Below are positions 4,985-21,560 of a stretch of 31,201 bases of DNA, in pieces (the first letter of the stretch is position 1; every line of letters starts with the position of its first letter). The stretch lies in IMG/VR virus record IMGVR_UViG_3300010885_024310, positions 1 through 31,201 of that record, one strand, 5' to 3'. The stretch is from a virus. A program made the translations under genes and the position numbers. The notes beneath the pieces were generated by a model that was given only the letters and a program-made list of their open reading frames with translations, was not told the DNA's origin and made no database searches.

Positions 4985-4989
4985 TACTT

Positions 4990-4997
4990 TATTTAAT
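4990..4997 (-). promoter_or_regulatory. Late-promoter-like box ATTAAATA
   Basis: ATTAAATA on the minus strand ends 5 nt before the GTG at 4984. It shares the TAAATA core and exact spacing with boxes at several other genes here. It lies in the 73-bp gap after the fibre gene. That gap has no convincing terminator, only a weak AAGAG-AAAT-CTCTT hairpin near 5013-5026 without a T tract. Confidence 0.5.
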
Positions 4998-5057
4998 GAT
5001 GATGCAAGAGAAATCTCTTAGGTCTTCAATTATCAATTATCTACATTTTAGATTTCG

Positions 5058-6983
5058 TTAAGATCTTACATTAGTACCATATTTTAATGAAGATAGTGAT
5101 CCGTTTTCAGTAAATCTATAAAAAGTACTTAATTGAGGCATGTTAGACAATGGCTTATATATTATATCACCTCCGTAAATATTCGATGCTTTGTATGCAT
5201 CGGTTGTTATGTTATAAATCCAACGATCTCCAGTTATGGTTCCTTCGGCACTATCCCATGCACCTTTATACATTAGTATGGGAGATGCGCTAAATTTATC
5301 TGTTTCCGTAGATGATCCGTCTAGTGTCCATTTTCTGATTTCTGAAGAATTATACATACTAATCAAAACTCCTTTACCAAAATTAACTGGATGTAACGGA
5401 TAGTCATTACTATATGTTGATATTCGAGTTGGTTGTGAATCATCTATTCTTTGTTTTCGTATATTTAAATTATTGACTATATAAATAGGGTATGCTTCTA
5501 TAGTACTACCACTGTTGATATTTATGAAAACGTCATTATTAAAACAGAAATCACCGTCAAATATGATCGAACATCTCATATGTGAAATATTTTGTGTGAA
5601 TGCATCATATTCTATTTGTCTTAAATAAGCATTGCTGTTCAAATCCATAAAACTATTTGTGAGGGTGGCAGCAGATAAATTACTTCCTGCTACATATTGA
5701 TTACCAATAATAGCTAGACCATATCCCGGATATTTATAATTGTTGTCTTGTCTAGATTTTAACGAAGATCCGCATACAAACACGTCTACATTTTTCAAAG
5801 CTCGTATTAAAGAATAATTATAAAATCCTGTTCCCAAATAAGATAATGTTACATTACTCAAATTTACATTACTATTTTGTATGTCATAAGGTGCTGAATC
5901 ATTACAGTTATTTCTATTAACAAAATTGAGGTATCTTATATTTATTTTAGAATCAAATATAGATAATCCAGCACCTCTTACATAACAAAAACCAATATTA
6001 GTATCGGTATAATTTAGACGCCTTGTCCAATTTGATTTTCTGTTTGCAACAGCTCCCCATTTTGAATCGATATCGCTCGAACTCCAATCTAAACTAATAT
6101 CATTAGTATAGTATACGTTATAATTAACGGAATTTGGTTCCTCGTCAAAATATCTTTCGGTATCCCACCAAAAATTCGGTGCTGTTCCTCTTTTGAAACG
6201 TGATCGTATATGTGCTGTTGCTGATTTAGATCCATTTCCTAAATTATATCCAAAATTCATCCCACCTTGCATTTTCTGATTTTTAATTCTAGGCCAGCAA
6301 TATAACCCACCTTTTAATCCAGAACTAAATCCGAAAATAGTATCAACCGTATTTTGATCTATGTATTGGATTGTTATATTAGCAGTGTTCCAATTCCAAT
6401 TTATTATCGCCCAATTTGCCGGGCGATTCGTATTGTCCGATGGCTCTAAGTAATTAGCTCCTTCTCCTTCGGTTGTGTCTTCGTCCACATATATAGTATA
6501 ATTGCCATTGATATTATTTTGTGCCCACCAAGAAGCTACTGTTAGTGTTTTGAAACATGGACGTAATTCACCGTTAACGTTTGATCGTGCTTGCGGAGCA
6601 CTATCAGTAGCATTAATATCACTGGGACGAACCACTACTATACTGGATGTTCCAGCAACTGGTGCTATTTTTATTTGTCCGGAAGCATTAAACATTAATC
6701 CACCAGTTGGATCTAAATTTACGGAAATTCCGTTATCTAATTTTATTCCCTTGGTTGTGTTGACTATATTTGGATTTAATTTATCTAATGTGATGGCATT
6801 ATTAGATATATTATTCTGGTTTATAGTTAACGAGGATGGATTGTTTTGTATTTCGCTATTTACGTATTTTAAAACAGAACTCAATTGTGCGGAGTTTGAA
6901 ACATTATTGTGATCTACATGGATATAATCTCCAGCATTTAATGTGTTGATCAAAGGTAGGTCTGTTATATACTTATTAGCCAT
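5058..6983 (-). CDS. Tail fibre-like protein with probable beta-helix
   Basis: This 641-residue protein starts MANKYITDLPLINTLNAGDY, a typical N-terminus of phage tail-fibre and tail-attachment proteins (compare MANKKITEL-type starts). A low-complexity Asn/Ser stretch follows (about 35-75), then conserved-looking aromatic segments (ASWWAQNN, WAIINWNW). The central region (about 300-520) has irregular repeats of short strands with Asn turns, such as IRYLNFVNRNNCND and NVNLSNVTLSYLG, consistent with a right-handed beta-helix. The role in host recognition or as a baseplate appendage is inferred. It has its own perfect TATAAATA box just upstream and follows a terminator, so it begins a new transcription unit. 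Start ATG 6983 is fixed by the box spacing and by the family-like N-terminus. Confidence 0.85.
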   Translation of the reverse strand: MANKYITDLPLINTLNAGDYIHVDHNNVSNSAQLSSVLKYVNSEIQNNPSSLTINQNNISNNAITLDKLNPNIVNTTKGIKLDNGISVNLDPTGGLMFNASGQIKIAPVAGTSSIVVVRPSDINATDSAPQARSNVNGELRPCFKTLTVASWWAQNNINGNYTIYVDEDTTEGEGANYLEPSDNTNRPANWAIINWNWNTANITIQYIDQNTVDTIFGFSSGLKGGLYCWPRIKNQKMQGGMNFGYNLGNGSKSATAHIRSRFKRGTAPNFWWDTERYFDEEPNSVNYNVYYTNDISLDWSSSDIDSKWGAVANRKSNWTRRLNYTDTNIGFCYVRGAGLSIFDSKINIRYLNFVNRNNCNDSAPYDIQNSNVNLSNVTLSYLGTGFYNYSLIRALKNVDVFVCGSSLKSRQDNNYKYPGYGLAIIGNQYVAGSNLSAATLTNSFMDLNSNAYLRQIEYDAFTQNISHMRCSIIFDGDFCFNNDVFININSGSTIEAYPIYIVNNLNIRKQRIDDSQPTRISTYSNDYPLHPVNFGKGVLISMYNSSEIRKWTLDGSSTETDKFSASPILMYKGAWDSAEGTITGDRWIYNITTDAYKASNIYGGDIIYKPLSNMPQLSTFYRFTENGSLSSLKYGTNVRS

Positions 6984-7092: not shown

Positions 7093-8448
7093 TTAATATT
7101 TCAAGTTAATATAACTGTTATCTTTGAAAATCAGATAATCATTAAGTTTTGTAATTAAATACGTAGAATCAACAACAACAACTATATCTGCGGTAGTATC
7201 GAAACCTGCTACATTTGATATCACACATTTGTATGTACCGGAATCCGAAAGTTCTAAAGAATTTATAGTAAACGTTTCGTTAGTTATTCCCGTGTCTATA
7301 TTATTTTTATACCATATGTAACTGAATGGTTCATCTCCTTTGACTTTAAGCATTAATGATAACGACTCATTTGGTTTTTTAATTATGCTATGTAACGGTT
7401 GTGAAACTATAGAAGGAGGATTTAGCAAAGTTATATTAACAGAATTACTTACTACGCTTCCAGCAGTATTACTTACTCTGCATGTTATATCAGAAAGATT
7501 TATTTTTATATTTGATATTGCATATGTCGAATTTGTTGCATTGGGATCATCGATTCCGTTAATTCTCCATTGATATGATAATGGTGTAGTTCCAGTGGCA
7601 TCTATATGTAATACCACGGAATCACCATTAGTTATATTTTGCGATATTGGTTGTAGTGTTATAACAGGCTTGATAGGAGCTACCTTAACTTGTAATGATG
7701 CAAATCTGCTAGTAATCGGATCTGATGTTGTGACAGAAGCAACACAATAATACACCATAGTGTCAGAAATCTGAGCATCTGTTATGGTCATCACATTGCT
7801 CACATGATTGATAGTATTGATATCTAGTCCATCTGTTCTAAACCATGAGTATGAAATGGGTTCGTCATTATATACAGCACTTACTACAAAAGAAGCCGTT
7901 TCGTGTTCGTTTATTATGATATTATGGTGTTGTCTGATCCATTTAAACTTGGATACGACTGCTGCTTGTATTGGTATTGTTTTTGATAAAATTAATTTAT
8001 TTATAACATTACCTTTAGCAGTATCCATCATAACAAAAACCGAATTGTCGGTATCGTCAAGAAATTGAGCATTTCCTATATATAAATTTTCATATTCTTT
8101 ATAAAACGAATTCTGTGCTATTTTTATAGGCATTTGATATCTAAAAATGCTGAAATCTAAATATGTTATTGTTATTGTGGGATAATAAAAAACATTATAT
8201 GTATCCACAGATGGATACAATGTGTGTTTTATCAAATCTAATTCTAATTTATTAATTTCTGAAAACGAAAACTTTTTAACTAATATATCGGTATCATCAG
8301 TGAAATTAATTTCTATTTTTATAATAGGATTAGTCAATCCCACCAAATTAGAAAAATCTATAACTATTTCGGTTTCTCCTTTGAATGTTCTAGCTGGGTA
8401 TGTATATCCCAATCCGCCAAAAGTAGTTAATTTATAATAAGAATCCAT
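7093..8448 (-). CDS. Virion protein with three tandem Ig-like domains
   Basis: This 451-residue protein has an N-terminal domain of about 165 residues with no assignment. Three immunoglobulin-like domains follow at about 176-257, 259-342 and 344-427. Each has the core Trp on strand C (YSWFR, YQWRINGI, YIWYKN). Domains 1 and 3 have a classical strand F (SDTMVYYC, SDSGTYKC); domain 2 has the variant LSDITCRVSN. Ig-like domains are common on phage capsids, tails and baseplates, where they are thought to give weak surface adhesion. Here the position after the wedge genes suggests a baseplate-peripheral protein. The start lies two bases after the upstream stop (TAATTATG), with no Shine-Dalgarno sequence. 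A terminator follows the gene, so it ends its transcription unit. Confidence 0.85.
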   Translation of the reverse strand: MDSYYKLTTFGGLGYTYPARTFKGETEIVIDFSNLVGLTNPIIKIEINFTDDTDILVKKFSFSEINKLELDLIKHTLYPSVDTYNVFYYPTITITYLDFSIFRYQMPIKIAQNSFYKEYENLYIGNAQFLDDTDNSVFVMMDTAKGNVINKLILSKTIPIQAAVVSKFKWIRQHHNIIINEHETASFVVSAVYNDEPISYSWFRTDGLDINTINHVSNVMTITDAQISDTMVYYCVASVTTSDPITSRFASLQVKVAPIKPVITLQPISQNITNGDSVVLHIDATGTTPLSYQWRINGIDDPNATNSTYAISNIKINLSDITCRVSNTAGSVVSNSVNITLLNPPSIVSQPLHSIIKKPNESLSLMLKVKGDEPFSYIWYKNNIDTGITNETFTINSLELSDSGTYKCVISNVAGFDTTADIVVVVDSTYLITKLNDYLIFKDNSYINLKY

Positions 8449-11139: not shown

Positions 11140-14100
11140 TTAATATTTAACAACGCCTAAGCCTTTTGCCAAGGAATATACCAACATGTTCTCTCTGATA
11201 TCATCCCACTGTTTTTTGGAGGTTATATATTCCGAAATTGTTGTGTATTTATCAGCCCAATTTATAATTCCTTCGGTTTGTGAATTGTCGTAATTTTCCA
11301 CATATTCGTAGAATTTATAATATTTTGTTATATCATTTTGTTCATATGTGTCCGGTAACACCAATCCCCACCCCCAATACGGATGATACGAACTCAAATA
11401 ATATGTTCTTGTATGTGAATCTAGAAATTTAATATAAGAAGAACTAAGAATATCTGTGTTTAAAATAGTGTAAGTTTCGCTAAATTTCTCAAATGCAATT
11501 ATATCGAATCCCGCTGATAATATCGTTGTTTGAAAATCTAATTCTTTTCCTTTGTTTGTTCCGTATATAGGAATCCCACCATTCGCGATAATATCCTCAT
11601 TTATATAACCATTATCTTTGAAATTTTGATTAAATTTGTTTCTACTTCCTTTTAATTTAGAAAATTTTATGGAAAACAAATCTATGAGACGATTCACATC
11701 AGCTGGTAAATGAAGATTATTGTTTGTAAATTCATACAAATCTTCGTTCAGCATGGTATACATCGATTTTAATGTCTTTAAATTACACGAATCAATGTTT
11801 GCCACGTTATCAGTAAAATTAGATATTTTTTCGTATACTAATTTTCCTAATTCTGTTGGATTTGATGATAATGTACCAAGAGCTGATCCTATTATTCCGT
11901 CAAATAGTTTATCATCGTTTGATAGATATTCTTGAAATCTATATGATTTTATTTGTTGTAATGCATCAAAATTTTCATTTACTTTTCTTATATCATATTC
12001 TCCAGAAGTAGAATCAAATATCGAAAACGTATTACTGATTCCTTCCATTTGTAATGTATCTGCTGCTAAATGCTCGTATTTGTTTATATGACGAAATCCA
12101 TTCCAATCTCCGTATCCTGTTATTTTGTCTTGTATTTTATTTGTAACTGAATCTACAATTTTGGGTATTTTTATACTTTTTGAAACAAAACCATATTTAT
12201 CGACATCAGATTTGAAATACTGTAACGAATGATTTTTATTGTCGATTACTAAAATAGTATTATCTGTTGTGCATGTTATTCCTTCTAAATTACTTATATA
12301 ATTATCGGGATTGTTATCAAACGGAGAATTTATTGTGTATGTTTGCGTAGTTATTATTGGTGGCGTTATTTTAACAACCTCGTTTATGTTTTTAGTGGCC
12401 CAAATATTTCCGTTTGCATCTAATGTTAAATTCCATAAACTTCCTCCTGCATCGTAATCAATTACAGTTGAACCATTTTTATCAATTTTTACTATTTTGT
12501 CATTTTTCGAAGACAATGCTTTGCTGTTCGTAATCAAATCTTTGCTTATTACCCATGCATCTCCATGTAAATCAGTTATTAGTTCAGTAGCTTCGTAGTG
12601 GGGAGTGAATATTTTATTAAAAATAAAAACTCCTTCGTTAGTGTATTTTTCAACAAACGATAAGGTTTGATTCGAATATGATATCCATATATTATCAAAT
12701 ACATCAGTATCTACGGATGCAGGAGTTACCGTGTTTTCGAAATCTATGTTATTATTTGCTATAGATGGCGTAATTACTTTATCTATGATATTTGTATTAT
12801 TATTAATTCGTATAGTGCTAACCGAATCATACAAAGTAATCCACACATTACCATATCGATCACTAGAGATATCCGAAGGAGAAGAATTTGCTGGTATATC
12901 AAAACTATCGTATACCAATGCAAGAGTATCATCACTATTAATGCTAAATTTTTTAACAGATTGTCGATCTCCGTCTACTATCCATGCATATTTAATAACT
13001 GAACCATCGTCATTCAATTTGGAAGTAACACAGGATGAATATATGCCAGATAACCCAACATCTAATACATGATCATTCAGTACTTTATTTAAAATATTCG
13101 CCGTATCAATTTTTACTGTTATGTTATGTATTTGTGTAGCTTGTGGTTCTCCTATTATTGCATTTGATGTGTCCACAAAAAATACATCATCGACATTTAT
13201 AGGAACTTTTGCATATATATGAACATCGTCTAATTGTTTATCAGATACCAAATATCCTCTAAAGTATCCTCCGTATTTTTCCGAAGACAATACACCGAAA
13301 TTAGCATAGAAATTTATATCTGGTATTTTTACATCGTTTTTATCCTGTAATTCAATTTGTACTTTATAAGGTTCCGGATTAGTTCCTTCTAATAATGATA
13401 ATATATTGTAGTATCTAGAGGAAGATACATAACCATATTTATTTTTGTCTTTAATTTTAACAACAAATGGTATTTTTTGGTTCGTAAATTTTAATTTATT
13501 AATATCGAACGTATTAATATATTTTCCGTTATTATCGTCATCAATGCCATTGGATGTTATTGATAACTCGCTTGGATTTAATTTTTTAATAGTTATAGAA
13601 AATCCATTAGTATCATACACGGTATTTAAAATAGAAAGTTGATTATCTATAAAATTCTTATCAAAATATTCTGGATTTTTGAATCGCTTCGTGTCAAACG
13701 TACAATAGATAGTTGCTGCTACGGTTTTGTCTAGTTCGCTTTCTTTTGGAAGATCATCTATATAATAAAAAAGTTTACTTCCTGATGTTCCTGCAAGGCA
13801 AGATCCAGTTTCCGATTTGTCGCAAAATATTAATGTATTATCGTAATCTAATTTTACATACAATTCGTTATTATCGGTTTGTATATTATTAACAGGAATT
13901 TTTTCTGTATTTCCTGTAATTGGATTTAAGATAAATGTTTCAAATCTAGCATATGGTTTCAAGTGACCCCATTTGTCCGAATTATATTTTTCCGCATTCA
14001 ACAACGGAGCTACGTTACCACTTACATGCAGATTTATAGTATATTCTCCTGATAATATATAAAAATTCTGCCAGCTATTGAATCGAAATACTATGAATGG

Positions 14101-14472
14101 ATTCTGTAAAGATCCTGTTTCTGTTTTGTTTTTTGATCCGGATAAAACAATGGTATCTGATATAAAATCTTTAACTAAAATATTTTGCGAAAACGAACTT
14201 TCGTTTCCACGGCCATTACTTCCTAATGTATAACATTGTACTGTATACCAACCCGGAAGATTGTAATAATGTGTTGCTGTGACTGAATCCGATGTTGTTC
14301 CATCACCAAAATCCCATAATATTCTCTGGTTCGAATAATTAGCATTCGAACCATCATCAAATGTAGCAACAAATGTAAATGGAGTTATAGGTAACGTATA
14401 CCCACTTGTTGCAGGCATTCCAGTATGATCAAAAACATCAAAATAAATGTAATTATTGTGTTTTACTTGCAT
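11140..14472 (-). CDS. PKD-domain and beta-propeller baseplate protein in the gp7 position
   Basis: This 1110-residue protein has a PKD domain at about 25-105 with the hallmark WDFGDGTT (53-60) and a matching GWYTVQCYT strand. At about 490-760 lies a Vgb/NHL-type beta-propeller with blades carrying DRYGNVWIT, DVFDNIWIS, DLHGDAWVIS and DANGNIWAT. The C-terminal about 270 residues look helical, with a Tyr/Trp-rich segment (YHPYWGWGLVLPD). It is read directly after gp25 and gp6, and its length is close to T4 gp7 (about 1030 residues), so a wedge role is inferred from synteny; the domain content is unlike T4 gp7. It overlaps the gp6 stop by one base (TAATG) and also has AGAGG 7 nt upstream, so coupling and a ribosome-binding site both support this start. 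Confidence 0.8.
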   Translation of the reverse strand: MQVKHNNYIYFDVFDHTGMPATSGYTLPITPFTFVATFDDGSNANYSNQRILWDFGDGTTSDSVTATHYYNLPGWYTVQCYTLGSNGRGNESSFSQNILVKDFISDTIVLSGSKNKTETGSLQNPFIVFRFNSWQNFYILSGEYTINLHVSGNVAPLLNAEKYNSDKWGHLKPYARFETFILNPITGNTEKIPVNNIQTDNNELYVKLDYDNTLIFCDKSETGSCLAGTSGSKLFYYIDDLPKESELDKTVAATIYCTFDTKRFKNPEYFDKNFIDNQLSILNTVYDTNGFSITIKKLNPSELSITSNGIDDDNNGKYINTFDINKLKFTNQKIPFVVKIKDKNKYGYVSSSRYYNILSLLEGTNPEPYKVQIELQDKNDVKIPDINFYANFGVLSSEKYGGYFRGYLVSDKQLDDVHIYAKVPINVDDVFFVDTSNAIIGEPQATQIHNITVKIDTANILNKVLNDHVLDVGLSGIYSSCVTSKLNDDGSVIKYAWIVDGDRQSVKKFSINSDDTLALVYDSFDIPANSSPSDISSDRYGNVWITLYDSVSTIRINNNTNIIDKVITPSIANNNIDFENTVTPASVDTDVFDNIWISYSNQTLSFVEKYTNEGVFIFNKIFTPHYEATELITDLHGDAWVISKDLITNSKALSSKNDKIVKIDKNGSTVIDYDAGGSLWNLTLDANGNIWATKNINEVVKITPPIITTQTYTINSPFDNNPDNYISNLEGITCTTDNTILVIDNKNHSLQYFKSDVDKYGFVSKSIKIPKIVDSVTNKIQDKITGYGDWNGFRHINKYEHLAADTLQMEGISNTFSIFDSTSGEYDIRKVNENFDALQQIKSYRFQEYLSNDDKLFDGIIGSALGTLSSNPTELGKLVYEKISNFTDNVANIDSCNLKTLKSMYTMLNEDLYEFTNNNLHLPADVNRLIDLFSIKFSKLKGSRNKFNQNFKDNGYINEDIIANGGIPIYGTNKGKELDFQTTILSAGFDIIAFEKFSETYTILNTDILSSSYIKFLDSHTRTYYLSSYHPYWGWGLVLPDTYEQNDITKYYKFYEYVENYDNSQTEGIINWADKYTTISEYITSKKQWDDIRENMLVYSLAKGLGVVKY
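11144..11151 (-). promoter_or_regulatory. Late-promoter-like box GTTAAATA inside the upstream gene's end
   Basis: GTTAAATA ends 5 nt before GTG 11138 and is itself the last codons of the upstream gene (GTT AAA TAT TAA). Because it overlaps coding sequence, conservation of the box may be forced partly by the protein. The spacing matches the other boxes in the window. Confidence 0.4.
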
Positions 14473-16298
14473 TATAAGACCTCTATTTTATTAATTAAAT
14501 TTGAAATCTGATAAAAGAACGGAAATTCGAAAAATTTCAATGTTATGTTTTGTGAAAGTGTATTAACTGTTGATTTAGTATACAATGGATTCCAGTATAT
14601 AAAATTTATTTTAGATGTTTTGTATTCTGTATTGTTATTGTATCTTATGGTTTCTAAAGACTTGACTCCATTTAAATTAAGTATATTGAAACTTAATTGA
14701 CTCATATCCAAAAATTGTCCTAGTTTATTATTACTTTGATCGAAGAAATTTTTAATATAATTAAAAACATTACTTCTTATTTGTTCTTTTGAAATAATTT
14801 GGTCGGAAGATCGGGTAATTCTTATAATAGTTTCGTCTCTGATAGAAGAAGTCACTGTTTCTCCCAAAATTGGTAATCCTATATCAAATGCTAAATAAAT
14901 CGGGTCGCTCACAACAACATTATGATTCAACATTTTGTATTGATTCATTTTGTCAATTATAGATTGCTTTTGTGCAAAGAATAATTCGATTGGAGTTGTT
15001 TCATTGATAATAGTTCCTAATTTGGGGACACAAAATGAATATATATTATTAAAATCGCACGCATCATTGAATGATATCTGATTAAAAAGCAATTTATCAT
15101 CCATGTTGGGTTTTTCCAATCCAAGATCATAAAAATAAGAAAGATATTCCGAAGTATACTGTTTATTTGATACAACTTTAACATCTTGAATGATATTAGA
15201 GAAGTTTTTATATATTAATGATTCATAATCGGAAACGGTAACTGCTCGATTTTGTGCAGAAAATACTAATGGTGCATTTTTTCTGATATCGTCTACGGTT
15301 TGTATGAATGTTGGAGGGACTGATGCATAAGTATTATCAAACTTCAATGAAATGATATCATTTGCTGTGATATAATTTGTATTTTCGTCTTTTATGTCAT
15401 TATATATTTCACTATATAGTCCTGTGTTAAATAATGTTAATTTTCCTGCTTTGGTTGCGTTGTTTCCGACCAATCCAGCATTACCGTCACTTTCGAGATA
15501 ATAAATAGCAATAATATCTCCGGAATTTAATCGCTTTCCATTAATATTATCTCCGAATTTTATTTCTTGGTGTCCATATTCGTTCAATCTTTTTTCAAAA
15601 ACTGATGAGATATTATCAGAAAGATACAAACTACTTACTTCTTTCCATTCCGTCCATTTTTGTGTATTAACATCTCTGATAAACACATATATATTGTTAT
15701 GATCGACCATTTTAGATGGTGATGACGAGGGATAATCAACATTTAGTGTAACTTGTTCGTAATTTTCACCTATAGCAATAGAAAGGGGATATTCTCTAAA
15801 CATTCCCTGATATAAAAGATTGTTACTTCCTATGGAATCTATGGTTTCGTTCTTATTAATGAGATATTTTTGAAATGTTATATCAGAATTAAATGAATAT
15901 GGTGTATTTCCTATACTCATATTAGAAAATCTTTTAATGGTATATGCTTTTCCTCCGGTTAGTTTAGAATCAGCACTAACTGACACGTTTAAACTTGATG
16001 TATAGTTACCATTTGTCTTGTATCCTATCAAAGATACAATTTTGTTCATGTTTTCGAACAAATCGGCTTGGGTAAACAACGAATCGGATGCTGTTTGGTT
16101 GAGATAAAACATCAATACATGAAATGTATATGCCACAATATCTACCAATCCATTGATATTACTACCTTCATAATCAATATCTGGAAATATACCACTACTT
16201 TTGATACGATTTGTTATTAATTGCTTCATGCTAACTGCATCAAACGCAGCATACGCATTTCTAGCAAGATTAAATTCTGTAAAATTTTGTGTATTCAT
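14472..16298 (-). CDS. 6: Baseplate wedge protein, gp6/J-like
   Basis: This protein of about 608 residues (T4 gp6 is 660) starts MNTQNFTEFNLARNAYAAFD, continues with helices and LVDIVAYTFHVLMFYLNQTA, and has the family signature APLVFSAQNRAVTVSDYESL in its middle. That signature is shared by gp6, gpJ and baseplate-J proteins. In contractile tails gp6-type proteins dimerise to form the inner iris of the baseplate and connect the wedges. The gene follows gp25 directly, as is common in contractile-tail loci. I chose ATG 16298, one base after the gp25 stop (TAAAATG). An in-frame GTG eight codons upstream (16322) would overlap gp25 and adds no family-like sequence. Confidence 0.9.
   Translation of the reverse strand: MNTQNFTEFNLARNAYAAFDAVSMKQLITNRIKSSGIFPDIDYEGSNINGLVDIVAYTFHVLMFYLNQTASDSLFTQADLFENMNKIVSLIGYKTNGNYTSSLNVSVSADSKLTGGKAYTIKRFSNMSIGNTPYSFNSDITFQKYLINKNETIDSIGSNNLLYQGMFREYPLSIAIGENYEQVTLNVDYPSSSPSKMVDHNNIYVFIRDVNTQKWTEWKEVSSLYLSDNISSVFEKRLNEYGHQEIKFGDNINGKRLNSGDIIAIYYLESDGNAGLVGNNATKAGKLTLFNTGLYSEIYNDIKDENTNYITANDIISLKFDNTYASVPPTFIQTVDDIRKNAPLVFSAQNRAVTVSDYESLIYKNFSNIIQDVKVVSNKQYTSEYLSYFYDLGLEKPNMDDKLLFNQISFNDACDFNNIYSFCVPKLGTIINETTPIELFFAQKQSIIDKMNQYKMLNHNVVVSDPIYLAFDIGLPILGETVTSSIRDETIIRITRSSDQIISKEQIRSNVFNYIKNFFDQSNNKLGQFLDMSQLSFNILNLNGVKSLETIRYNNNTEYKTSKINFIYWNPLYTKSTVNTLSQNITLKFFEFPFFYQISNLINKIEVL
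14480..14484 (-). promoter_or_regulatory. Shine-Dalgarno sequence AGAGG
   Basis: AGAGG lies 7 nt upstream of ATG 14472 on the minus strand, inside the end of the gp6 gene. It is one of the few recognisable ribosome-binding sites in the window and supports the TAATG-coupled start. Confidence 0.55.
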
Positions 16299-16299
16299 T

Positions 16300-16779
16300 T
16301 TAATTATTAAAGATATAGCCACTGTTAGCTAATGATCCAAACATAGATATGTTATGTATATTTAGGGCTGGTATATTATAGTATATATGAATATCAAATT
16401 CATTAACGTCTTCTAAAATTATGATATGCACATTAGTAACTTTAACTCGTGGCTCAAATCTAGAAATTTGCGTATATATTTCATTTCTTAGAAGTTCTCC
16501 GATGTCACGGGTTGCTGGTATGAATAAAAATTTCCTAAAATCCAATCCGTATTCAGGATTTAGTATTTTATCTCCGGGTGCTGTGGTAAATAAATTTCTA
16601 AGAGAATTTTTTATCGCATCAATATCATAATCGACTTTAAAATCATTAATTTCTCTTTTTCTGTGTAATTCGGAATTAATACCATAATTTTCCTCCAAAT
16701 CCATATGGAGATCAGCGTAGAAATAAGAATTGTTCTTCATTTCACTCTGAGGAAGATTATTTAATACTATTTTTCCCAT
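16300..16779 (-). CDS. 25: Baseplate wedge protein gp25 (GPW/gp25 family)
   Basis: The protein has 159 residues (T4 gp25 is about 132). The family core is complete: DAIKNSLRNLFTTAPGDKIL, NPEYGLDFRKFLF, then RNEIYTQISRFEPRVKVTNV with the conserved FEPRV, and a C-terminal strand pair (FDIHIYYNIP). gp25 is a small, highly conserved wedge protein that starts sheath polymerisation at the baseplate. About 45 extra N-terminal residues precede the core. It is the first gene of the left wedge operon and is separated by 32 bp from a divergent plus-strand gene. A TAAATA box lies 5 nt before its ATG, with no Shine-Dalgarno sequence. Confidence 0.92.
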   Translation of the reverse strand: MGKIVLNNLPQSEMKNNSYFYADLHMDLEENYGINSELHRKREINDFKVDYDIDAIKNSLRNLFTTAPGDKILNPEYGLDFRKFLFIPATRDIGELLRNEIYTQISRFEPRVKVTNVHIIILEDVNEFDIHIYYNIPALNIHNISMFGSLANSGYIFNN

Positions 16780-16784
16780 TAAAA

Positions 16785-16792
16785 TATTTAAC
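16785..16792 (-). promoter_or_regulatory. Late-promoter-like box GTTAAATA for gp25 and the wedge operon
   Basis: GTTAAATA ends 5 nt before ATG 16779 (spacer TTTTA). It lies in non-coding DNA, so coding constraint does not explain it. It sits back-to-back with the box of the divergent gene. Confidence 0.6.
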
Positions 16793-16798
16793 AGAATG

Positions 16799-16806
16799 AC
16801 TAAATA
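16799..16806 (+). promoter_or_regulatory. Late-promoter-like box ACTAAATA, plus strand
   Basis: ACTAAATA ends 5 nt before ATG 16812 (spacer TTGTT), the same arrangement as on the minus strand. Only a few bases separate it from the divergent gp25 box. Confidence 0.6.
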
Positions 16807-16811
16807 TTGTT

Positions 16812-17390
16812 ATGGAAAAGAAGTTTATTAAACTTATGGAATCAAATATCACCAGATCAACCCGAGGAGGATTTCTAGTAGGTGATTATGTTGAATTTCT
16901 TAAAAATTATAAATCCAAACGACAATACAAAGATCTGAATGATTCTATGAAAGATGCAGTCGATCATTTAGCAAATACCGAACTACATGTTCGTGTAGTT
17001 GGTGTGAACGATACCAAGTCTACTAGTTTTCAAGGAAATCCTGATGAAATGACTGGAAATGTCGTATTATCTCTTGCAGAAGATCAAGGAGGAGGTCGTA
17101 TATACCATAATGTTCTAGTTCCTTCTAGTTTATGCAAAGTAAAGGACTTTTATCCTAATTATGCTCCATTACCAGCCGTATGGTCATACGATAACAAAGA
17201 AATTCACAAACCAATTGAAGTAAAACAAGTAGATAGTGGTTCTTCAGGCATTGATTACGCTTTGCCTACCAAAGACACAAAAATTAAACCTTCTTCTACC
17301 TCTAAAAAGAAGAAAAAGAAGGTTAGTGTTAAGATTAACAAAGAATCTTATACCGCTGGTTATCTATCAGGAATGGAATATCTTCGATAA
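16812..17390 (+). CDS. Conserved-looking hypothetical protein with Lys-rich tail region
   Basis: This 192-residue protein is one of only two plus-strand genes. It begins MEKKFIKLMESNITRSTRGG and has a compact domain at about 15-125 with GFLVGDYVEFLKNY, LHVRVVGVNDTKST, GNVVLSLAEDQGGGRIYH and VLVPSSLC, suggestive of a small beta-barrel. A low-complexity linker with six consecutive lysines (about 164-169) follows, and a C-terminal peptide ESYTAGYLSGMEYLR. I do not recognise the family. The Lys run and linker could contact nucleic acid or a partner, which is speculation. It is read divergently from gp25, and its 3' end overlaps the convergent clamp-loader gene by 24 bp. Its upstream TAAATA box suggests late expression. 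Confidence 0.75.
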   Translation: MEKKFIKLMESNITRSTRGGFLVGDYVEFLKNYKSKRQYKDLNDSMKDAVDHLANTELHVRVVGVNDTKSTSFQGNPDEMTGNVVLSLAEDQGGGRIYHNVLVPSSLCKVKDFYPNYAPLPAVWSYDNKEIHKPIEVKQVDSGSSGIDYALPTKDTKIKPSSTSKKKKKKVSVKINKESYTAGYLSGMEYLR

Positions 17391-18746
17391 GGCAACCATT
17401 GCCACAAAGGCATTGATTTCTATGTCCATAACAGAAGAATGACGGTCCATATGGTGTCCTAATACCATAATTGACTCTTTTTTCTTCATGGAATCAATAG
17501 TTTCGTTATAAATTAAGTTCAATAATGCTTTTAGTAGACTATGATAGTCAGATTGAAACACGCTTTCGTTCTTAATTACGAATTCTCTGAATTCTATACT
17601 ATCTTCTTTTAGAATTTTAGTGTAAATTTCACGAATAAACTCATCTGGTAGTGATGAATTTCGTATATTAAGTGTTCCTGATAAAGAATACTTCTGTAAT
17701 TCATTCAGAATCTTTCGGAAATCGGGAAAATTTGATTTAATTAATGATTGGAATGATACAAACTGGTCTTTTGGTATAATAATACCTTCTTTATTAAGAA
17801 TTTTAACACAATGTTTAGCAACATCACTAATGTTGTGACTGAAACTAAGTGTTTGGCATCTACTTTGAATTGCTGGAATGATTTTATGCTTATAATTCGC
17901 AGTCAAAATGAATCTGGTGTTGTCTGCATACTCTTCCATAACATTGCGTAACGCTCTCATACCTTCTACTGTAACCCCATCACAATTAGAAGTTAATACT
18001 TGCTTCTTTCCCACAAAGAAGTTGTGGGTTTCATCAACGCTGAGATCATATACATGAGCCTTTTTATCAAGTTTATTAATTTTTTTAATTTTTAATGTAT
18101 TTATGACATTAAATTCATTTACTGTAACTATTTCATCAATTCCTTCATTAATAATATCTATTAACTTTTTTCTAATAGGAATATTTGATTCGGGACTGCT
18201 AACATACCATTTGTGTTCAGCGGTACAACACACAATTTCTCCATTTTCGAATTCAACTTCATATACATCTTGTATATTTTTATCTATTTTATAAAATGGT
18301 CTCCATTCAATTCTATTTTTGGAAAAATTGAATGTTTTTACTAAATCATTGCATTCGTCTACATCTTTGATTCTTATTTGTTGCTCTGTGCCATTTCTAA
18401 GAACTGATATAAGAGTATCTTCATGTAGACATTCATCTAATATCACAACTTTAATACCACCATCAAATGACTTGGTTTGCGCATATCCGATGATCTTATG
18501 TCTGATGGTATCAATGCCGTTTTCATCAGATGCATTGATATAAAGGTAATCACATTTCAGAATATCATTAACAATGATCTTAGCTACTGAAGTTTTACCA
18601 CTTCCGGGGGTTGAAGTGAATAATAAGTGAGGAATATCATGATTTTTCTTAAAAACTTCTAGAATTTCTCTTGTCTCATCCGAGATACAAAGACTTTCGA
18701 GAGTTTTTGGTCTGTGTTTTTCACACCAAAGTTGATTAAAATCCAT
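17367..18746 (-). CDS. 44: DNA polymerase clamp loader ATPase (gp44/RFC-like) interrupted by a mini-intein
   Basis: The protein has 459 residues; without the 149-residue intein the host protein is 310, close to T4 gp44 (319). It has an N-terminal WCEKHRPKTL segment typical of RFC/gp44 proteins. Walker A is TPGSGKT (46-52). Walker B is VVILDE (100-105), interrupted by the intein and resuming with CDG. Sensor 1 is LTAN (281-284) and the arginine-finger motif is SRC (295-297). The helical collar occupies the C-terminus. It loads the sliding clamp for replication; in T4 the clamp also activates late transcription. ATG 18746 has AAGG 6 nt upstream and lies 8 bp after the dUTPase stop, so the two are one operon. 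No TAAATA box is present, unlike the structural genes. The 3' end overlaps the convergent gene by 24 bp. Confidence 0.93.
   Translation of the reverse strand: MDFNQLWCEKHRPKTLESLCISDETREILEVFKKNHDIPHLLFTSTPGSGKTSVAKIIVNDILKCDYLYINASDENGIDTIRHKIIGYAQTKSFDGGIKVVILDECLHEDTLISVLRNGTEQQIRIKDVDECNDLVKTFNFSKNRIEWRPFYKIDKNIQDVYEVEFENGEIVCCTAEHKWYVSSPESNIPIRKKLIDIINEGIDEIVTVNEFNVINTLKIKKINKLDKKAHVYDLSVDETHNFFVGKKQVLTSNCDGVTVEGMRALRNVMEEYADNTRFILTANYKHKIIPAIQSRCQTLSFSHNISDVAKHCVKILNKEGIIIPKDQFVSFQSLIKSNFPDFRKILNELQKYSLSGTLNIRNSSLPDEFIREIYTKILKEDSIEFREFVIKNESVFQSDYHSLLKALLNLIYNETIDSMKKKESIMVLGHHMDRHSSVMDIEINAFVAMVALSKIFHS
17985..18431 (-). other. Mini-intein (149 residues, no endonuclease domain) in the clamp loader
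   Basis: The intein spans host residues 106-254. Block A starts at CLHEDTLISVL with Cys1. Block B holds CTAEHKW, the T-x-x-H splicing motif (intein T70, H73). Block F is VYDLSVDETHNFFVG. Block G is VLTSN, followed by Cys +1. Asn149 is the cyclising residue; the penultimate residue is Ser rather than the usual His, as in DnaE-type inteins ending ASN. There is no space for a LAGLIDADG or HNH endonuclease. The exteins join as VVILDE-CDG, reconstituting the DExD box, so the ATPase is inactive until splicing. All splicing residues look intact, so activity is likely. Confidence 0.93.
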
Positions 18747-18752
18747 AATATG

Positions 18753-18756
18753 CCTT
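18753..18756 (-). promoter_or_regulatory. Shine-Dalgarno sequence (AT)AAGG for the clamp loader
   Basis: AAGG lies 6 nt before ATG 18746 and overlaps the dUTPase stop codon (CGATAAGG), which suggests coupled translation. Confidence 0.45.
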
Positions 18757-19222
18757 ATCGACCACTAGAACCAAACCCTTTATCACCTCTATTGGTTTCG
18801 TCTTTCTGTTCTGTCCAACAAATCTCGGGTTCGATCAATTTATACACAACAAGTTGAGCAATTCTGTCTCCTTTTTTGACATTATATGATACATCCGTAT
18901 TGTTTATCAATGCTATCGCCAAATTTCCACGGTACGCACAGTCCAGTACCCCAAAAAAAGCGGTAATACCGTGTTTGAAGAACATTCCAGACCTAGATTC
19001 AATACGAATCCAATATCCGGGCTGAATAAACCCAATATCCAATCCAATTGGAACTTTCATTGTTCCATGGGCTGGAATTAGTGTATCTTCTACAGCATAA
19101 ATATCATAACCAGTATCGCCTGTGAGGTGTTCTTTGTTATTTCTTTCGGGAAGACGAGCATCTTCGTGTGTTTTTACAAAACAAATCTTAATTTGTGGAA
19201 ATGGTGAATTAGTGAACGGCAT
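18755..19222 (-). CDS. dut: dUTPase (trimeric dUTP pyrophosphatase)
   Basis: The protein has 155 residues from ATG 19222, the normal length for trimeric dUTPases. All five motifs are present: 1, DTGYDIYA (36-43); 2, RIESRSGM (73-80); 3, GVLDCAYRGN (91-100) with catalytic Asp94 and the base-stacking Tyr97; 4, GDRIAQLVV (118-126); 5, RGDKGFGSSGR (145-155). It hydrolyses dUTP to dUMP and pyrophosphate, keeping uracil out of phage DNA and feeding dTMP synthesis. An in-frame start 42 codons upstream (19348) exists but would overlap the divergent gene and adds unrelated sequence, so I reject it. It is the first gene of a dUTPase-clamp loader operon with a possible sigma70-type promoter and no TAAATA box, consistent with early or middle expression. 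Confidence 0.96.
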   Translation of the reverse strand: MPFTNSPFPQIKICFVKTHEDARLPERNNKEHLTGDTGYDIYAVEDTLIPAHGTMKVPIGLDIGFIQPGYWIRIESRSGMFFKHGITAFFGVLDCAYRGNLAIALINNTDVSYNVKKGDRIAQLVVYKLIEPEICWTEQKDETNRGDKGFGSSGR

Positions 19223-19229
19223 AATTGGA

Positions 19230-19258
19230 ACTATATGTTGGTGGATACTGGAAAGCAA
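19230..19258 (-). promoter_or_regulatory. Possible sigma70-type promoter for dUTPase-clamp loader
   Basis: Minus-strand TTGCTT, a 17-bp spacer and TATAGT lie in the 59-bp divergent gap. The -10 matches 5 of 6 positions but the -35 only 3 of 6. The predicted start is next to the ATG, leaving almost no leader. In AT-rich DNA this could be chance. Confidence 0.3.
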
Positions 19259-19268
19259 GGAAAAATTG

Positions 19269-19276
19269 TCTAAATA
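19269..19276 (+). promoter_or_regulatory. Late-promoter-like box TCTAAATA, plus strand
   Basis: TCTAAATA ends 5 nt before ATG 19282 (spacer TCTGT), the same layout as the box upstream of the other plus-strand gene. It supports 19282 rather than the in-frame ATG at 19225. Confidence 0.55.
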
Positions 19277-19281
19277 TCTGT

Positions 19282-19740
19282 ATGTCCGATGATACAGAAC
19301 TAGATGATACCGTGAATTCTCTCTTAAATCAATTGAAATCCGTACCAACTGTTGCTAAAAAAACACATGATCCTTCTAATTCGGACTATACTTCGGAAAA
19401 TTTAGAAAAATTCGTAATTCAATACGCAAGTAGACTAGTAGAAAACGCAATGGAATCAGTTGAATACATAAAAGATAATGTTCAAGCAGCGCCCACAGCA
19501 GAAGATGTTATATCTTTATCGGAATTAATCAAATCAACATCAAGTTCCATAGAAATTCTTAATAAGATCGTCATCAATAAAGAAAAATTGAAGAATTCCG
19601 TTAAGATTAAACAAATGGATATTGAAAACAAACGAGAAGAACTAGAAGTTAAAACAACTACGTTTCTTGCCACAAGAGAAGAAGTATTAAAACAACTAAT
19701 AAACAAAGCTAAAGTTATCGATATAACTCCCACTGCTTAA
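19282..19740 (+). CDS. Probable small terminase subunit (gp16-like)
   Basis: This acidic, almost all-helical 152-residue protein has a disordered N-terminus (MSDDTELDDTVNSLLNQL). At about 33-95 it has the pattern DYTSENLEKFVIQYASRLVE, a two-helix core with APTAEDVISLSELIKSTSSS, and a long coiled coil at about 95-140. Length and layout (a DY-containing segment, then two antiparallel long helices) match T4 gp16 (164 residues), which forms an oligomeric ring that regulates DNA packaging. Sequence similarity is too low to be certain; another coiled-coil phage protein is possible. No large terminase follows, since the next gene is convergent and shares the TTAA at 19737-19740 as both stop codons. 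ATG 19282 is chosen from the TAAATA spacing and the N-terminus. Confidence 0.5.
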   Translation: MSDDTELDDTVNSLLNQLKSVPTVAKKTHDPSNSDYTSENLEKFVIQYASRLVENAMESVEYIKDNVQAAPTAEDVISLSELIKSTSSSIEILNKIVINKEKLKNSVKIKQMDIENKREELEVKTTTFLATREEVLKQLINKAKVIDITPTA

Positions 19741-21560
19741 CAACCGGGATTATTTACTACAGATGCTTTTATTGGATCATCTGTAGACCATTTAACATAT
19801 TTTATATATTCCGAATCCATTTTTATTACGTATGGTTTGAATTTCGCCATCCCAAATTTTTTAACACGCTCCCAATCTGTTCTACATGTAAACATAGGCG
19901 CAAATTGTGATGCTTCTTGTGGATTCCACTTTGCCAATGGTTCTCTTGTGTCAGCAACTTGAATAGTCATTTTCAAATTACTAGCTCCTTTTCTAAATGC
20001 TGCCAACATTTTACTTCCTGTTTTAGAAGGCAAGAATTCATCAATCAAAAATTTAAAATTACCTCCCTTATGAATAAGATTCGGTTCGGATTTATCACCC
20101 ACTTGTCGTCTTTCAACCCAAGTATTACCTGATTTGTCTGTGCATGTAATAATAAGCACATCACCTACTTTAACCATGCCGCTTTTTATAGTTACTGGAT
20201 CAACTGCGATGGTTTTTAGCGGTATGATCATATTTTCCGCACTTCCTAATCCAATTTCTGATCCAGTATCAGGACATTCATCCATAGCATATCCATATGC
20301 GGTGACTTTTACTTCGCCATATCCGAATTCATATACTTTTCCATTGGTTGGTATGTTGCCCAATCCTGCTCCGGCTACATTGGTTTCACCTGCTGTTATA
20401 TTCGTTCCTCCTCCAGCGGTTACTACGGATTCTAATCCTTTAGATGGACCACTATAGGTATCATATTTAGGAGCTTTTGGTGAATCATCGTAACTTCTGT
20501 AGTTATTATCGGTGGGGACATCTAATGCATTTACATATGTATTCTCTGTTACATATTGTGCTGGTGCTGGTGCTCCTAATATATCAATCAATGACATTAC
20601 ATTTCCGTTTTTAACCCCTATGTATTTTCTTTTAGAGTAAGAAGCATTCATGGTGGGATCATATGGATTGTATCTTTGAGCATATTCAAACATTCTAAAA
20701 CAATCTCCTAATTGATTTTGTATTTTTGATTGTATTTGTGAATGAATGCTTGAGGTTGTAAAATAAGCTTGTGTGTCTCCTGTTAATGGTAATCTTTCAA
20801 ATGTATTATCGGGTGTGAGTCCTTGTGCTGCTTTGTCTTTTACTCGTTGTCTGTCTTCATCAGAAAAAAATGGTTTCACGCCATCTTTATAAAGATCTTG
20901 TGATAATATTTTCAATTTAAAAAATTCGTTTTTGAATGCTGGTTTGATTTTATTCATTATTCCAGTGGCAATATTTGTCGGCGCATGTAATGCATCGCTT
21001 CCAACATCACAGAGAATTGATGCGCTATCGCTTAATGCTCTTCCAAAGTCTGCTAGCGTTCCAATGCTTGATGATGTAGGCTTGAAATAATTACAAGGAG
21101 CTTTACATGTTTTAAGCATTGATGCTACTTTATTGAGAAAGTTTTTATCTTTATCAATTTCTTTATGATTCGTAATGAATGTGGTAGGTTTATGATTCGT
21201 AATGAATGTGGTAGGTTCGTATACGGATGTTATTTGTTTTGCCGCTTCGAATGCATTTCCTAATTCATTTTTAACCATCGTACTGTAGTATTCCGGATAA
21301 ACATTTACTTTATGAACGAAAAATTTTAATGTCTGTACATCTAAATCAGGTCCATATATAACAAATTTTTTAACAAAATTTCTTAAAGCATTTAATGGAT
21401 TAGATGATCGTTTTACTGCTTTCCAATCATACATCAATTCGACTTCTTGTGGAAACCCGCTTACGAATTCACAAAAGGTTGTATTCTTTTCTAGAAATTG
21501 TGGATTAGGACCAATAGATATAGCTTCTAAAAATTCTGGAAATGTATTTCGGTAAAACAT
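19737..21560 (-). CDS. Baseplate hub protein with 3D-type double-psi barrel domain
   Basis: This 607-residue protein has a 3D-like domain at about 417-536. It starts with VTAYGY (419-424), then TIAVDP (450-455), a VGDK (487-490) and FLIDEF (504-509), giving the three spaced aspartates of that family, and ends FRKGASNLKMTIQV. The 3D fold is a double-psi beta-barrel related to MltA/RlpA lytic transglycosylases, so it may cut or bind peptidoglycan during infection and replace a gp5-type lysozyme. Before it, residues 375-410 form a Gly/Thr/Asn-rich linker. Residues 116-133 hold a perfect tandem duplication of PTTFITNHK. It follows the gp27-like gene, matching a hub operon. AAGGAG 8 nt before ATG 21560 is a strong ribosome-binding site. 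The assignment to the hub is inferred from order. Confidence 0.75.
   Translation of the reverse strand: MFYRNTFPEFLEAISIGPNPQFLEKNTTFCEFVSGFPQEVELMYDWKAVKRSSNPLNALRNFVKKFVIYGPDLDVQTLKFFVHKVNVYPEYYSTMVKNELGNAFEAAKQITSVYEPTTFITNHKPTTFITNHKEIDKDKNFLNKVASMLKTCKAPCNYFKPTSSSIGTLADFGRALSDSASILCDVGSDALHAPTNIATGIMNKIKPAFKNEFFKLKILSQDLYKDGVKPFFSDEDRQRVKDKAAQGLTPDNTFERLPLTGDTQAYFTTSSIHSQIQSKIQNQLGDCFRMFEYAQRYNPYDPTMNASYSKRKYIGVKNGNVMSLIDILGAPAPAQYVTENTYVNALDVPTDNNYRSYDDSPKAPKYDTYSGPSKGLESVVTAGGGTNITAGETNVAGAGLGNIPTNGKVYEFGYGEVKVTAYGYAMDECPDTGSEIGLGSAENMIIPLKTIAVDPVTIKSGMVKVGDVLIITCTDKSGNTWVERRQVGDKSEPNLIHKGGNFKFLIDEFLPSKTGSKMLAAFRKGASNLKMTIQVADTREPLAKWNPQEASQFAPMFTCRTDWERVKKFGMAKFKPYVIKMDSEYIKYVKWSTDDPIKASVVNNPGC
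21162..21215 (-). repeat. Perfect 27-bp in-frame tandem duplication
   Basis: Two identical adjacent 27-bp copies (21162-21188 and 21189-21215) encode PTTFITNHK twice in the hub protein. The absence of any mismatch suggests a recent slippage or unequal-recombination event. Confidence 0.95.

What the first reader, a model, noticed from the sequence alone, without database searches (positions are those of the whole stretch)
17985..18431. Endonuclease-free mini-intein inside the clamp loader Walker B box
A 149-residue intein interrupts LDE|CDG, the DExD box, of the gp44-type ATPase. All splicing blocks are visible (Cys1, TAEH, THNFF, TSN|C), but there is no homing endonuclease. The ATPase cannot work before splicing, so splicing could time replication and, if late transcription is clamp-dependent as in T4, late gene expression. 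It is short and lacks the penultimate His, like fast DnaE-type inteins.
Basis: partly seen in the sequence, partly recalled or inferred. Interest (0 to 1): 0.72.

Follow-up and report, generated by a model that had tools for sequence, protein, structure and literature searches.

The report
Re-fused split intein in clamp loader
A phage DNA-replication gene carries a self-removing protein insert that was almost certainly once split in two by a selfish endonuclease gene; relatives show every stage of that endonuclease's loss and the re-joining of the halves, which shows how broken genes can heal.

Summary
Window 17985-18431 (-) encodes a 149-residue class-1-type mini-intein, with no endonuclease, between LDE and CDG of a gp44-type clamp-loader ATPase (459 aa; 310 spliced). 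AlphaFold2 gives the intein fold. The comparison changes the meaning. The same site is occupied in 54 distinct relatives from viral contigs. In most of them (39, plus 6 with a decayed or divergent nuclease) the intein is naturally split at the canonical position, with a free-standing TnsA-like PD-(D/E)XK nuclease gene between the halves. This is the 'fractured gene' arrangement, at a site outside the RFC sites a-c. Three more are split with no detectable nuclease. The window and four other lineages are contiguous, and one clade for them is rejected (p-AU 7e-10). Three of these keep the old C-half start Met in frame, and a fourth has a GTG codon there. The window's sister L008 is split with a nuclease, and the sequences on either side of that insert abut in the window. 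Best reading: a homing split intein lost its endonuclease and re-fused into a cis-splicing mini-intein under purifying selection. Nothing supports splicing as a replication or late-transcription timer. Splicing itself is untested. New variant of a known kind.

The parts
17367..18746 (-). Clamp-loader (gp44-type AAA+ ATPase) precursor ORF, 459 aa, containing the intein
18432..18746 (-). N-extein, 105 aa: Walker A (TPGSGKT) and Walker B up to LDE
   Evidence: Pfam AAA
17985..18431 (-). Mini-intein, 149 aa, Cys1 to Asn149, no endonuclease
18429..18431 (-). Cys1, first splicing nucleophile (block A)
   Evidence: invariant in alignment A4
18213..18224 (-). Block B, TAEH (T and H invariant in the family)
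18105..18116 (-). Re-fusion junction, EFNV codons GAATTTAATGTC. In the sister L008 this is where the N-half ends and the C-half starts, with the nuclease ORF between them; Val109 aligns with the second Met of the L008 C-half (MMINTLKIK)
18015..18053 (-). Block F, VYDLSVDETHNFF
17982..17999 (-). Block G and +1 residue, VLTSN|C (penultimate Ser, terminal Asn, +1 Cys)
17367..17984 (-). C-extein from CDG (rest of Walker B, lid and collar), with stop codon
   Evidence: Gp44_lid

Best explanation
The insert is a self-splicing class-1-type intein. Cys1 attacks the LDE-Cys bond, the chain is passed to the +1 Cys, Asn149 cyclises, and the loader is religated as LDE-CDG, restoring Walker B. It descends from a mobile element at this site: a naturally split intein (N part about 100-113 aa, C part 36-42 aa) whose halves flank a free-standing TnsA-like PD-(D/E)XK homing endonuclease gene, so that the loader was made as two polypeptides joined by trans-splicing. 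In the window's lineage the endonuclease gene was deleted and the two half-genes fused in frame, giving one ORF and a cis-splicing mini-intein. It has been kept because only an exact excision at the essential Walker B box would be tolerated. Shown by sequence: the intein and its position; a split sister with nuclease; repeated independent contiguous forms; fossil starts; decayed nucleases; stronger amino-acid conservation in the intein than in its host protein. Inferred: that it splices, that the split relatives trans-splice, that the nuclease promotes homing, and that fusion followed nuclease loss in the window's own ancestor.
For: Intein. Sister L008 is split, with the nuclease ORF (4366-5733) between an N-half ORF (3650-4321) and a C-half ORF (5708-6451); its blastn blocks end at window 18117 and resume at 18114. 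Survey of viral contigs: 54 distinct loci = 39 split with nuclease, 6 split with decayed or divergent nuclease, 3 split without detectable nuclease, 6 contiguous, plus the window. Extein tree: contiguity needs at least 5 independent changes, all forced by well-supported branches; window + L008 100/99; one contiguous clade rejected, p-AU 6.9e-10. Nuclease tree: those of L011 (= L008), L012, L014 (= L009), L034 and L108 form one clade, 100/99; in the extein tree the same five fall in the clade that holds the window and L062, so a nuclease was probably there before those two lost it. Scars: fused L083, L057 and L062 keep the C-half start Met in frame; L049 has GTG where L053 and L043 have the ATG; L092 and L053 keep only the 3' end of the nuclease gene; L043, L055 and L082 keep larger fragments; L061 and L094 have broken nuclease frames. 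Direction in recent pairs: intein dS 0.05-0.17 against extein dS about 1.2-1.4 for L083 (fused) / L079 (split+nuclease), and 0.04-0.07 against at least 1.19 for L053 (nuclease lost) / L073 (nuclease present), i.e. recent transfer of the intein alone, then nuclease loss. Constraint: window/L008 intein dN 0.091 and 0.054 at dS 1.25-1.4, exteins dN 0.245 and 0.315.
Against: No splicing or homing was observed. Counts of change on a tree do not by themselves give direction; direction rests on the scars, the nuclease tree and the recent-transfer pairs. The window's own scar is weak: Val-GTC rather than Met, with an ATG out of frame. Intein-free loaders are nested in the extein tree, so some gain and loss by transfer has occurred, and L084's nuclease does not follow the extein tree. 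dN/dS between window and L008 averages both lineages and dS is near saturation, so constraint after nuclease loss is not isolated.
Confidence: 0.84

Rival explanations
1. The contiguous mini-intein is the ancestral form, and nuclease genes inserted repeatedly into such inteins, splitting them; the window was never split.
For: Trees alone do not polarise the change. The window has no in-frame Met at the junction. Insertion of free-standing endonucleases into inteins is the published idea for how fractured genes arise (Dassa 2009, from memory; the paper is not held).
Against: Four of five contiguous lineages keep a start codon or its GTG derivative exactly where split relatives start the C-half. 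Nuclease-less split forms keep the nuclease 3' end. Nucleases of the window's relatives form one clade. Near-identical inteins occur fused and split in otherwise diverged genes.
Confidence: 0.1
2. The intein is an adaptive switch: splicing at Walker B sets when clamp loading, and thus replication and late transcription, begins.
For: The insertion follows the Walker B Glu, which clamp loaders need for ATP hydrolysis and ligand binding (PMC3740443). The intein is under strong purifying selection without an endonuclease.
Against: Constraint is equally expected because an unspliced loader would be inactive. Most relatives are split selfish elements with nucleases. No sensor feature was found. TATAAATA is below chance expectation.
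Confidence: 0.05
3. The insert is a non-splicing structural domain, a dead intein, or an assembly chimera.
For: Splicing was not tested. The Pfam score is just under the curated cut-off.
Against: All catalytic residues are intact, the intein fold is predicted confidently, nonsynonymous change is low, a second contig agrees, and intein-free loaders are continuous at the site.
Confidence: 0.02

Closest known systems
'Fractured genes': split inteins with a free-standing endonuclease between the halves (Dassa et al. 2009, known from memory and from citations; later PolB split intein with an HNH endonuclease in phage MIJ3, PMC6892783)
   Same: The window's relatives have this arrangement: conserved replication gene, split at the canonical intein position, nuclease ORF between the halves.
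   Different: The window is contiguous and nuclease-free. The host site is the clamp-loader Walker B box. The nuclease is TnsA-like rather than Vsr-like or HNH. Fused and half-decayed stages are present in the same family.
RFC inteins (archaeal/eukaryotic clamp loader), sites a (Lys51|Thr52), b (Ala76|Ser77) and c (Ser138|Cys139) (PMC2814812)
   Same: Inteins in the conserved core of a homologous clamp loader. Relatives of the window also carry inteins at GK|T (like site a) and at RFIL(T)|C (like site c).
   Different: The window's site, DE|C of Walker B, is none of the three.
Cyanobacterial DnaE split inteins (Npu, Ssp)
   Same: Predicted fold, split position about 102/36-40, no penultimate His (from memory).
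   Different: Different host gene; low sequence identity (22-23% in structural alignment); no free-standing nuclease known between DnaE halves (from memory).
gp41-1, NrdJ-1, IMPDH-1 phage-like split inteins
   Same: Metagenomic split inteins of phage replication-related genes (gp41-1 and NrdJ-1 structures among the fold matches).
   Different: No close sequence match; other host genes and sites.

Membership tests
Class 1 intein | Hint/intein fold | tested here: met
   AlphaFold2 pLDDT 86.8; top PDB neighbours are inteins, E 4e-8
Class 1 intein | Cys/Ser at position 1, block B TxxH, terminal Asn, +1 Cys/Ser/Thr | tested here: met
   Cys1, TAEH, Asn149, +1 Cys
Class 1 intein | Intein-free homologues continuous across the site | tested here: met
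   L002-L006 read LDEFCG or LEEADG without insert
Class 1 intein | Self-excision with extein ligation | not testable with these tools
   needs expression and mass spectrometry
Class 1 intein | Penultimate His (common, not defining) | tested here: not met
   TSN|C; relatives have THN, TSN or TGN
Fractured gene with split intein | Intein coded in two separate genes | tested here: not met
   Window ORF is continuous; met in most relatives
Fractured gene with split intein | Free-standing endonuclease gene between the halves | tested here: not met
   None in the window; present in 39 of 54 distinct relatives, decayed or divergent in 6
Fractured gene with split intein | Common descent of intein with such loci | tested here: met
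   Sister to the split L008/L011 in extein and intein trees; 83% identity over the first 105 intein residues
RFC-a/b/c inteins | Insertion at one of the three RFC sites | tested here: not met
   Site is LDE|CDG in Walker B versus sites in PMC2814812
TnsA-like PD-(D/E)XK nuclease (relatives' endonuclease) | Sequence and fold similarity with conserved E...D...ExK | tested here: met
   Pfam TnsA-like N in 13 of 16 members, best 7.7e-5; invariant E, D, ExK; TnsA structures with Foldseek probability 0.98-0.91 but E only 0.055-0.2

The most novel reading that the evidence does not exclude
After losing its endonuclease and re-fusing, the Walker B intein was taken over by the phage as a post-translational gate: the loader is inactive until splicing, so splicing rate sets the onset of processive replication.
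Probability: 0.06. Interest if true: 0.8.

Novelty: new variant of a known kind. Interest (0 to 1): 0.62.

Why it matters
Split inteins with an endonuclease between the halves have been read as a step in how genes become broken. This family holds all stages at one site: split with endonuclease, split with decayed endonuclease, split without it, and re-fused. Re-fusion happened at least five times on the trees built here. So gene fracture by a homing endonuclease appears reversible, and contiguous mini-inteins can be descendants of split ones. Matched natural pairs such as L083/L079 and window/L008 make the cost of trans- versus cis-splicing directly testable, and the family supplies about 50 uncharacterised natural split inteins for protein ligation.

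Tried and rejected
tblastn of the intein alone against 50,697 phage records: no match at E 0.01, so no isolated phage with this intein was found there. Megablast of window 15000-21000 against phages: none. Group I intron instead of split intein: set aside, because the nuclease ORF fills the gap and its stop overlaps the C-half start in nearly all loci. T4-like late control: TATAAATA not above chance. Profile search of the nuclease against PDB sequences: nothing meaningful. Literature: Dassa 2009 not held; the searches of the held library listed no clamp-loader Walker B intein by title or abstract, and the passages read named none; this is not proof of absence elsewhere. The threshold label 'decayed nuclease' is doubtful for L100, whose ORF is long (488 aa) but divergent.

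Full report
What is there. The ORF at 17367-18746 (-) encodes 459 residues. Residues 106-254, window 18431 to 17985 (-), form a 149-residue insert between LDE and CDG; without it the protein is 310 residues. The flanking protein is a gp44-type clamp loader: PHROG_168 1.8e-63, Pfam AAA, Gp44_lid. The insert carries Cys1, TAEH, VYDLSVDETHNFF and LTSN followed by Cys; Pfam Intein_splicing scores 34.5 bits (cut-off 35.8). AlphaFold2 on an alignment of five contiguous homologues gives pLDDT 86.8 and pTM 0.79; every listed PDB neighbour is an intein or intein-like domain. A second contig, L001, matches over 11,377 bases with two substitutions, one within the intein.

Relatives at the same site. A scan of viral contigs with the intein alone returned L008 (83% identity) and L009 (57%), each matching only the first 103-105 residues. 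In both, the N-half ORF stops at that point, a separate nuclease-like ORF follows, and a third ORF starts with the rest of the intein and the C-extein. Scans with the nuclease and with an alignment of N-inteins (best 80 of 87 kept) gave about 90 loci. Profile searches of their ORFs and removal of duplicates left 54 distinct loci with both halves: 39 split with nuclease, 6 split with nuclease below the length threshold (L043, L055, L061, L082, L094 decayed or frame-broken; L100 long but divergent), 3 split with no detectable nuclease (L040, L053, L092), and 6 contiguous (L030, L049, L052, L057, L062, L083; L030 is the window's near-identical contig). The split is at the canonical position: N part 100-113 residues (116 in L040), C part 36-42. 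The nuclease stop overlaps the C-half start in nearly every locus, most often by 20 bases, which suggests translational coupling (inference).

The nuclease. The family matches PHROG_15427 'endonuclease' and Pfam TnsA-like N terminus in 13 of 16 members. E, D and ExK are invariant, and the predicted structure has TnsA among its best matches at high probability but weak E-values. It is thus most likely a PD-(D/E)XK nuclease. That it is a homing endonuclease is inferred from its position and from the transfer evidence below. No trace of it remains in the window.

Direction of change. On the extein tree contiguity needs at least five separate changes, all forced by well-supported branches, and a single contiguous clade is rejected (p-AU 6.9e-10). 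The window is sister to split L011 (= L008) at 100/99 and L062 to split L014 (= L009) at 100/99. The nucleases of L011, L012, L014, L034 and L108 form one clade at 100/99; in the extein tree the same five lie in the clade that also holds the window and L062, which argues that a nuclease was there before those two lost it. Scars agree: L083 reads FSP|MKKLKIK, L057 ...VI|MQKIKIK and L062 ...VT|MLAQLKIK, each with an in-frame Met where split relatives start the C-half; L049 has GTG in that place (compare MELKKIKI in L053 and L043); the window has Val (GTC) opposite the second Met of L008. L092 and L053 keep only the last codons of a nuclease gene. Two recent pairs have near-identical inteins in diverged genes: L083 (fused) / L079 (split with nuclease), intein dS 0.165 and 0.045, extein dS 1.24 and 1.36; L053 (no nuclease) / L073 (nuclease), intein dS 0.065 and 0.044, N-extein dS 1.19 and C-extein dS saturated. 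These look like recent transfers of the intein followed by loss of the nuclease. The tree counts alone would not tell direction.

Constraint. Between the window and L008, dN is 0.091 and 0.054 in the two intein parts at dS 1.25 and 1.40, against 0.245 and 0.315 in the exteins. The C-extein dS (1.38) is like that of the intein, so in this pair the intein has the same age as its host gene and is the more constrained. dS is near saturation, so ratios are rough.

Function. The insertion lies directly after the Walker B glutamate, which RFC needs for hydrolysis and for ATP-dependent ligand binding (PMC3740443), so the precursor should be inactive until spliced (inference). That explains why an intein without an endonuclease is retained: only exact removal is tolerated. 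It does not require a regulatory role. TATAAATA occurs 7 times against 10.6 expected, so the T4-like late-transcription premise gains no support from this window.

Place among known systems. Fractured genes with split inteins and a nuclease between the halves are known (Dassa 2009, cited in PMC6892783, PMC7090010 and PMC10448857; the paper itself was not held). RFC inteins are reported at three sites, none of them Walker B (PMC2814812). I found no report of this site in the held papers, but many papers are not held. The window is therefore a new variant of a known kind: the re-fused, nuclease-free end state of a fractured gene.

Noticed in passing
L062:3163-6053, L094:3149-7700, L043:3917-6311, L019:2195-6648: Clamp-loader genes with a second, atypically split intein at Walker A (GK|T): a short N part ending about 30 residues after GK|C, another ORF or a nuclease remnant in the gap, and a long C part, so that the loader is coded in two (L062) or three pieces.
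   Followed up: partly
L062:3443-4468: The ORF in the Walker A gap ends with ...YDFCYKNVIVEFNGDFWHMNP..., which resembles Vsr-like endonucleases by eye; a different nuclease type from the Walker B one.
   Followed up: no
L095:6257-8554: A long intein of about 520 residues, apparently with a LAGLIDADG-type domain, at RFILT|C in the C-extein, equivalent to RFC site c, in addition to the split Walker B intein.
   Followed up: partly
L040:4644-6045: Split intein without nuclease in which the N-half frame runs over the start of the C-half: apparently an out-of-frame fusion still needing two polypeptides.
   Followed up: partly
L109: Same Walker B split intein and nuclease in a contig binned as a Nitrosarchaeum MAG (JAHFUM010000010.1); viral contig or mis-binning not resolved.
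   Followed up: no
L027:4383-7202: The TnsA-like nuclease also sits next to an intein start in a terminase-like gene, so the nuclease family is not tied to clamp loaders.
   Followed up: no
window 16812-17390 (+): Convergent ORF of unknown function overlapping the clamp-loader 3' end by 24 bases; homologues sit in the same place and orientation in L008 and L009.
   Followed up: no
window 7093-8448 (-) and 11140-14472 (-): Large virion-type proteins with immunoglobulin-like and PKD domains next to baseplate genes (gp25-like, gp6-like).
   Followed up: no
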